DNA from: Rhodococcus tibetensis
GTDB taxonomy: Bacteria > Actinomycetota > Actinomycetes > Mycobacteriales > Mycobacteriaceae
DNA length: 64,000 bases
Reading direction: 5' to 3'
NCBI RefSeq assembly: GCF_024438035.1
Contig: NZ_JANFQF010000005.1
Span: 186,001-250,000, forward strand
The notes beneath the pieces were generated by a model that saw nothing but the letters and a program-made list of their open reading frames with translations, did no database searches and was not told the DNA's origin. The position numbers and the translations under genes are program-made. Shown here in pieces: positions 51,597 to 53,022 of this stretch (the first letter of the stretch is position 1; each line of letters opens with the position of its first letter).

Positions 51597-52100
51597 TCAG
51601 TTGGCCTTGCGGTAGGAGGATGCGAGTTCGTCGGCGCGATCCCACGGTGACCAGTTCACTTCGCGGCCGTCGAGTTGCGCCTCCACCACCTCGAGACCGG
51701 CGTGCCATCCCGCCGCGTGCGCATAGGCGGAGTCTTCTTCTTCCACCGTGTGCGTCAGCGTCAACCAGCAACCACCGCTTCCGTCGGGACTCAGCTCCCA
51801 ATGCAGCGTCTCCGCGTCCCACAGGTACTCCAGAATGTGGGCGGGATGCACCGAGATGACCGTTCCAGTGGTCGTGTGGTCTTCGGGTAGGCCGAATCGG
51901 CGGACCTGCTCCGGTGTCACGCGGAACACCAGTTCCGCCCCGGGGGTGAGGTCGAAGTCGACGTCGGCGGGGAACCAGGCCTTCAGATACTGGGGGTCGG
52001 TCAGTACCCGCCACACCTTCTCCGGAGAATGCGACAACGCTTGCTGGAAGCGAAGAGCTACGCGCCCGTCGTACGTGAAGTTGACGGTGCCGAGATCCAT
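51597..52100 (-). CDS. SRPBCC (AHSA1-like) domain protein
   Basis: 167 residues: an alpha/beta barrel of the START-related kind, opening in DLGTVNFTYDGRVALRFQQ and LSHSPEKVWRVLTDPQYLKAWFP. Such proteins bind hydrophobic ligands. The start at 52100 has GGAGGT upstream; a longer reading to 52193 would add an unsupported N-terminus. The ligand is unknown. Confidence 0.88.
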   Translation of the reverse strand: MDLGTVNFTYDGRVALRFQQALSHSPEKVWRVLTDPQYLKAWFPADVDFDLTPGAELVFRVTPEQVRRFGLPEDHTTTGTVISVHPAHILEYLWDAETLHWELSPDGSGGCWLTLTHTVEEEDSAYAHAAGWHAGLEVVEAQLDGREVNWSPWDRADELASSYRKAN

Positions 52101-52246
52101 GGGTGACCTCCGTGCTCGAGGGCGGAACCGTGCCACCATGGTACTGGCAGGCGACCGCAGAGCCACAGGGTTCGAGCACAAAAAAGCCGCCACTACCTGG
52201 GGCTCAGTTCTCGATGGTCACGCGGGTCGACAAGGAGGTACAACGG

Positions 52247-52757
52247 ATGGCCGCGAGAATGACCGACCACTTGATGCACGCCGGACACGAGCCGTCATCG
52301 ACCCGCGGACGGGCTTCGGGTTTCACACCACCGCCGGCACGCCGATAACCGTCACTGCCGGTTCTGTCAGTGGTCACGCATTTCGGCCGTCGGATTTCGA
52401 ATCGATCACTCTCGACTTCGCCGAATCCAACCGGCCGCTGATGCTGTTCGAATTCGTGCTCCCAGCTCGCTACGACTTGCCGCGTGCCGACGTGATCGCG
52501 ACGCTCGAGCCGAGTGTGACCGCGACTGTGTGCGCCTACAAAGGTCACGCCTCGCACTGGTCGCTCCCGGGAGCGGGTGACAAGGGCGTCGACACCGCAT
52601 GGATTACGAACAACCCCCGATCGAACTTGCTCAGATCGCCGGAATGGTCTGCTTGTATCAGGAACGTGTCGATGTCGTCGACGACGAGGCACAGACCAGA
52701 CCTGTCACACCCTGGTCGAAGCGGTCCTCGGCGAGACGTGGCCGGCGGCGGTGGTGA
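52247..52757 (+). pseudogene. decayed DUF427-family gene
   Basis: An excellent ribosome site (AAGGAGGT) leads to an ATG at 52247. The first 13 or so codons resemble the DUF427 N-terminus (RMTDHLMHAG, frame 2) but stop at 52348. DUF427 similarity resumes in frame 1: GFHTTAGTPITV and HAFRPSDF, then ESNRPLMLFEFVLPARYDLP, CAYKGHASHW and DTAW near 52600. There a single missing G (TGGATT where TGGGATT is expected) shifts to frame 3, where YEQPPIELAQIAGMV, YQERVDVVVDD and RPVTPWS run to a stop at 52757. Blocks usual in full-length members are missing between ITLDF and AESNRP and near the start. So it has two or more deletions and a -1 shift. The protein would be nonfunctional. Confidence 0.78.
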
Positions 52758-52780
52758 AGTGGGCGCGAAAGGAGGCCTTG

Positions 52781-52826
52781 CGCGCGAATCGCAGGTCGGA
52801 AATATTCCTCACCTGCGATTCGCGCG
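52781..52826 (-). terminator. 16-base-pair hairpin downstream of the tRNA
   Basis: CGCGCGAATCGCAGGT (52781-52796) pairs perfectly with ACCTGCGATTCGCGCG (52811-52826). The loop itself holds GGAA-ATA-TTCC. It lies 14 bases beyond the tRNA 3' end on the minus strand, followed there by CCTCCTTTCG, so it is a probable terminator for the tRNA transcript. It is unusually long and may be bidirectional. Confidence 0.65.
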
Positions 52827-52839
52827 AATGTCTCGACAG

Positions 52840-52913
52840 TGCCCTCGGTGAGACTCGAACTCACACTGGACGGGTTTTGAATCCGTTTCCTCTGCCAATT
52901 GGGATACGAGGGC
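52840..52913 (-). tRNA. tRNA-Leu (anticodon CAA), short variable arm
   Basis: On the minus strand the acceptor stem GCCCTCG/CGAGGGC, discriminator A, T-arm GTGAG-TTCGAGT-CTCAC, D-stem TCC/GGA and anticodon stem ACGGA/CCCGT all fold. The anticodon loop is TTCAAAA, giving CAA (Leu, UUG codon). The variable region is only 5 bases (CCAGT), a class I shape, where bacterial tRNA-Leu normally has a long arm. One A-C mismatch closes the anticodon stem. No encoded CCA. I recall a tRNA-Leu near Rv1626 in M. tuberculosis, which would fit. Confidence 0.85.
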
Positions 52914-53022
52914 GTGTTGCGCTGTACCACTGTAGAAGATCGTCGTCGGGAGTCAACCACCGGTACCCTCTAACCGTTCGCTCCCCGCTCCGGGGTCGTC
53001 CGAGCAGAGGAGAATGGGGACC

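What the first reader, a model, noticed from the sequence alone, without database searches (positions are those of the whole stretch)
52247..52757. DUF427 gene in decay: a clean one-base deletion plus block losses
An intact ribosome site and start lead into DUF427-like sequence spread over three frames. A single missing G near 52603 (TGGATT instead of TGGGATT) moves the reading from frame 1 to frame 3, and the family C-terminal ending (RPVTPWS) is preserved in the new frame. Internal segments typical of full-length members are absent, so this is not a lone sequencing error. It may be recent, since similarity on both sides of the break is still strong.
Basis: partly seen in the sequence, partly recalled or inferred. 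Interest (0 to 1): 0.7.

Follow-up and report, generated by a model that had tools for sequence, protein, structure and literature searches.

The report
Decaying DUF427 gene beside a tRNA
This is the wreck of an ordinary bacterial gene of unknown function, broken by two block deletions and a frame break, while the closest related species at hand still carries it whole at the same place; it is a common kind of gene loss.

Summary
Window 52247-52757 is a pseudogene of a DUF427 (Pfam PF04248, NTP_transf_9) protein. The closest held genome of the genus (G013; sister with support 1.0 in a one-gene tree) has an intact 270-codon orthologue between the same neighbours. Against it the window copy lacks about 208 nt after the first ~15 codons (frame changed) and 123 nt in frame, has a one-nucleotide frame break in 52600-52605, and no stop where the orthologue stops. 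From its start codon only 33 codons can be read. About 332 of 810 coding nucleotides are gone, so sequencing error cannot be the whole story. An intact paralogue, 44% identical to the G013 protein in its best part, lies elsewhere in the genome. How recent the decay is stays open: dN/dS against G013 (0.175) is no higher than among intact homologues (0.188-0.348), yet at positions invariant in nine outgroups only the window copy departs, 7 to 0 (p=0.016). Ordinary; low interest.

The parts
52232..52249 (+). Shine-Dalgarno-like AAGGAGG and ATG start (ATG at 52247), conserved in G013
   Evidence: sequence; alignment with L034
52247..52291 (+). remnant of the N-terminal ~15 codons, first frame; this frame stops at 52348
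52291..52294 (+). junction of the first block loss (about 208 nt; changes the frame)
   Evidence: comparison with intact orthologue L034; the exact breakpoint is ambiguous by about 12 nt
52294..52419 (+). middle segment, second frame
52419..52420 (+). junction of the second block loss (123 nt, in frame), which removes the start of the DUF427 domain
52420..52602 (+). DUF427 core segment, second frame
   Evidence: PF04248 E=1.3e-11; in a match 76% identical to the orthologue, E=3.6e-29
52600..52605 (+). one-nucleotide frame break
52605..52757 (+). C-terminal segment (to RPVTPWS at 52718), third frame; native stop absent, the frame runs on to 52757

Best explanation
A DUF427-family gene of about 270 codons lay between an SRPBCC-like gene and tRNA-Leu in the common ancestor of the window's species and G013. 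It is intact in G013. In the window's lineage it was inactivated by two deletions, a one-nucleotide frame break and loss of the stop codon. Shown: the lesions, the intact orthologue, the shared flanks. Inferred: presence in the common ancestor (rather than two arrivals), that no functional protein is made, and that the cell tolerates the loss; the order of the lesions is unknown. By my reading of the printed junctions the deletions end at no more than about 3 nt of shared sequence, which would fit illegitimate recombination or replication slippage (inference).
For: Intact same-locus orthologue with the same gene order. G000 and G013 are sisters, support 1.0, in a tree of the ANTAR gene of 26 of the 28 genus genomes plus one outgroup. 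Lesion sizes 208, 123 and 1 nt. Three protein matches in two frames to one orthologue. The PF04248 match covers profile positions 11-79 at 46.1 bits, while the other 63 of the 64 listed matches in the genus score 78 or more. 7 versus 0 changes among 60 positions invariant in nine intact outgroups.
Against: dN/dS between the window segments and G013 (0.175, 141 codons) is not above that of 28 pairs of intact homologues (0.188-0.348). Polarised with Antrihabitans alone, 8 versus 3 changes is not significant (p=0.23; 21 of 32 differences unresolved). Both would fit late decay. Only one genome of the window's species was seen, so loss across the species is untested.
Confidence: 0.95

Rival explanations
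1. Sequencing or assembly error in an intact gene.
For: Only one assembly (63 contigs) was available; a one-nucleotide break alone could be an error.
Against: Two block losses of about 208 and 123 nt and a changed stop position do not come from a base-call error; the frame break is not in a long single-base run.
Confidence: 0.03
2. A shortened but working protein: the middle frame (about 52294-52602) is translated from another start as a mini-DUF427 protein.
For: That frame is open over a long stretch (51748-52851) and its DUF427 core still scores above the Pfam cut-off (44.6 against 22.1 bits).
Against: The open frame overlaps the opposite-strand SRPBCC-like gene upstream; I saw no Shine-Dalgarno-like site before an internal start (reading by eye, not scanned); the domain lacks its first 10 and last 21 profile positions in this frame; at seven positions conserved in nine outgroups only this copy is changed.
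Confidence: 0.03
3. Programmed frameshifting joins the frames.
For: Strong similarity on both sides of the one-nucleotide break.
Against: G013 reads the same region in one frame; the larger losses and the absent stop remain; three frames would have to be joined.
Confidence: 0.01

Closest known systems
G013 same-locus orthologue (L034:1435-2244), 270 aa, PF04248
   Same: Same flanking genes and strand; 124 of 156 residues compared in the retained segments are identical
   Different: Intact in one frame; contains both blocks that the window copy lacks
DUF427 / NTP_transf_9 (PF04248), solved example PDB 3DJM, beta-tent fold
   Same: Core of the domain (profile 11-79) still recognisable; the intact orthologue matches 3djm_A, E=6.3e-11; fold from PMC4287342, passages seen, the link of that fold to 3DJM being my inference
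   Different: Domain incomplete and split over two frames
Own-genome paralogue G000:C12 (L001:1417-2199)
   Same: Same family, two DUF427 matches, open frame without stops
   Different: Its best part is only 44% identical to the G013 orthologue; another place in the genome

Membership tests
DUF427 (PF04248) | Score above the curated cut-off | tested here: met
   46.1 bits against cut-off 22.1; 44.6 bits for 52420-52602
DUF427 (PF04248) | Complete domain in one reading frame | tested here: not met
   Profile 11-72 in one frame, the rest in another
Pseudogene | Inactivating lesions against an intact same-locus orthologue | tested here: met
Pseudogene | Relaxed selection | tested here: inconclusive
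   7:0 at outgroup-invariant positions, but dN/dS not raised
Pseudogene | No functional product | not testable with these tools
   needs expression data
Pseudogene | Lesions present in other strains of the species | not testable with these tools
   the whole-genome set holds one genome per species (tool description); no other strain was found or examined

The most novel reading that the evidence does not exclude
The gap between the SRPBCC-like gene and tRNA-Leu is a gene-turnover slot in this genus: it holds a DUF427 gene in G013, its wreck here, a sigma-factor-like gene with a carboxymuconolactone-decarboxylase-family gene in G005, a DUF2461 gene in G027 and about 350 nt in G012, so the decay is one step in repeated gain and loss beside a tRNA.
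Probability: 0.35. Interest if true: 0.25.

Novelty: new member of a known kind. Interest (0 to 1): 0.12.

Why it matters
It matters little beyond annotation: the stretch should be marked as a pseudogene, not as a DUF427 protein or a mere frameshift error. The pair of related species, one intact and one decayed at the same locus, is a tidy example of gene loss.

Tried and rejected
Pairwise dN/dS as a sign of relaxed selection: computed, then compared with 28 intact homologue pairs; it does not discriminate. In one search the ANTAR-gene comparison used a wrong frame and was redone. In one search only five of nine outgroups entered (four were on the other strand); redone with nine. The idea that the homologues of other genus or family members sit at the same site: rejected for the 19 fetched stretches from outside G000 and G013 that were checked (L038-L040, L043-L050, L072-L079), in which neither the SRPBCC-like gene, the ANTAR gene nor the tRNA was found; the genome-search loci among them hold only about 1.5 kb on each side. 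The idea that the hairpin beside the tRNA is a repeated element: its full pattern occurs once in the genome, and a looser pattern is no commoner than its control (11 and 10 against 11 and 11). Literature: pseudogene + Rhodococcus + DUF427, 0 papers. The 21 papers found with DUF427 are words that begin so: two of the three that I looked into are about DUF4278.

Full report
Observation. The start (ATG 52247, AAGGAGG upstream) reads 33 codons to a stop ending at 52348. DUF427-like protein sequence continues in a second frame to about 52602 and in a third from about 52605 to RPVTPWS at 52718; the third frame then runs to 52757 because the stop of the orthologue is not present. The search of the own genome with PF04248 gives three matches: two in one open gene on contig C12 and the window match, profile positions 11-79 of 93, 46.1 bits, E=1.9e-11. 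On its own, segment 52420-52602 scores 44.6 bits, E=1.3e-11; segments 52294-52419 and 52605-52718 alone give no Pfam match at E<=0.01, and 52247-52345 none at E<=1. With the G013 protein as query the window gives three matches in two frames: residues 171-240 (76%, E=3.6e-29), 221-271 (72%, E=1.6e-15, with one stop inside because the match runs past the frame break) and 45-129 (41%, E=4.1e-14, running upstream of the retained part).

Intact orthologue. In a search of the window's genome and 60 related genomes with window 52180-52960, 48 of 61 match; only G013 matches the DUF427 part at the same locus. The best hits of the other genus members cover the tRNA-Leu and sequence next to it; seven of them also have a short, 68-70% match to the DUF427 core at another place. 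G013 holds a single open frame of 270 codons from the corresponding start, ending RPVTPWS, flanked as in the window by the ABC transporter gene (93% identical over the part compared), the SRPBCC-like gene (97%), tRNA-Leu (100%) and the ANTAR response regulator (99.5%) (families). In a tree of the ANTAR gene from 26 of the 28 genus genomes plus one outgroup, G000 and G013 are sisters with support 1.0.

Lesions. Against G013 the window copy lacks about 208 nt between the first ~15 codons and the middle (not a multiple of three, so the frame changes), 123 nt in frame at 52419/52420, and one nucleotide in 52600-52605; the stop position is changed. Two three-nucleotide differences are in frame and may be ordinary variation. 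About 332 of 810 coding nucleotides are missing. By eye the junctions share at most about 3 nt (stretches printed); I did not search for longer flanking repeats.

How recent. Pooled dN/dS of the three later segments against G013 is 0.175 (141 codons; dS 0.578, dN 0.101). Flanking genes give 0.127 (237 codons of the ABC gene), 0.033 and 0.007, with dS 0.282, 0.389 and 0.322, so the wreck is more diverged than its neighbours at synonymous sites too. But 28 pairs among eight intact homologues elsewhere in the genus give 0.188-0.348 (dS 0.13-0.53), so 0.175 is no sign of relaxation; those homologues sit at other places and may be under their own constraint. A second test compares the four segments and G013 with nine intact outgroups (Antrihabitans and eight genus homologues): of 156 residues compared, 60 are invariant in all nine; only the window copy departs at 7, only G013 at 0, both at 5, neither at 48 (two-sided binomial p=0.016). 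The eight genus homologues are close to each other, so the nine are not independent. With Antrihabitans alone as outgroup the counts are 8 and 3 of 32 differences, 21 unresolved, p=0.23. Together: decay after the split from G013, with some drift since; its age is not settled.

Context in the genus and family. With the G013 protein, 22 of 28 genus genomes have a match at E<=1e-10; only G013 has the same-locus gene intact; eight others have a near-full-length homologue of 50-53% identity, and none of those eight fetched stretches shows the window's neighbours. Of 401 genomes of the family (own included), 32 match at E<=1e-60, the best after G013 at 66%. PF04248 matches 22 of 28 genus genomes; G013 has one match, the window's genome three including the wreck. 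The intact paralogue of the window's genome might make the loss tolerable, but its best part is only 44% identical to the G013 protein, so this is speculation.

The slot. Between the SRPBCC-like gene and tRNA-Leu, G005 has a gene with sigma-70 regions and a carboxymuconolactone-decarboxylase-family gene, G027 a DUF2461 gene, and G012 about 350 nt with only ORFs of 60-148 aa that I did not analyse further. G020 and G019 have about 1.4 kb there, not examined. In the stretch of G024 the SRPBCC-like gene was not found. This suggests gene turnover at this place; it was not tested systematically.

Function of the intact gene. I found no established function: DUF427 is called a domain of unknown function with the beta-tent fold that systematically lacks the zinc site (PMC4287342, 2015, passages seen); a solved relative is 3djm. 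Of 21 papers holding a word that begins with DUF427, 15 were listed; I looked into passages of three, two of which are about the unrelated DUF4278. The others I did not open.

Organism.

Noticed in passing
52781-52829: A stem-loop of about 16 base pairs lies just beyond the 3' end of tRNA-Leu (minus strand). Similar hairpins follow the same tRNA in G013 and in eight other genus genomes (L006-L013), for which one search lists no DUF427 match at that locus; most of the other loci folded (L014 and on) show no such hairpin or a different one, and five had no exact tRNA match and were not folded. The full pattern occurs once in the genome. Possibly a terminator or processing element.
   Followed up: partly
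52110-52838: The interval between the SRPBCC-like gene and tRNA-Leu holds different genes in different genus members (G013 DUF427; G005 sigma-factor-like and carboxymuconolactone decarboxylase family; G027 DUF2461; G012 about 350 nt).
   Followed up: partly
L001:1417-2199: Intact 261-aa paralogue with two DUF427 matches elsewhere in the window's genome.
   Followed up: partly
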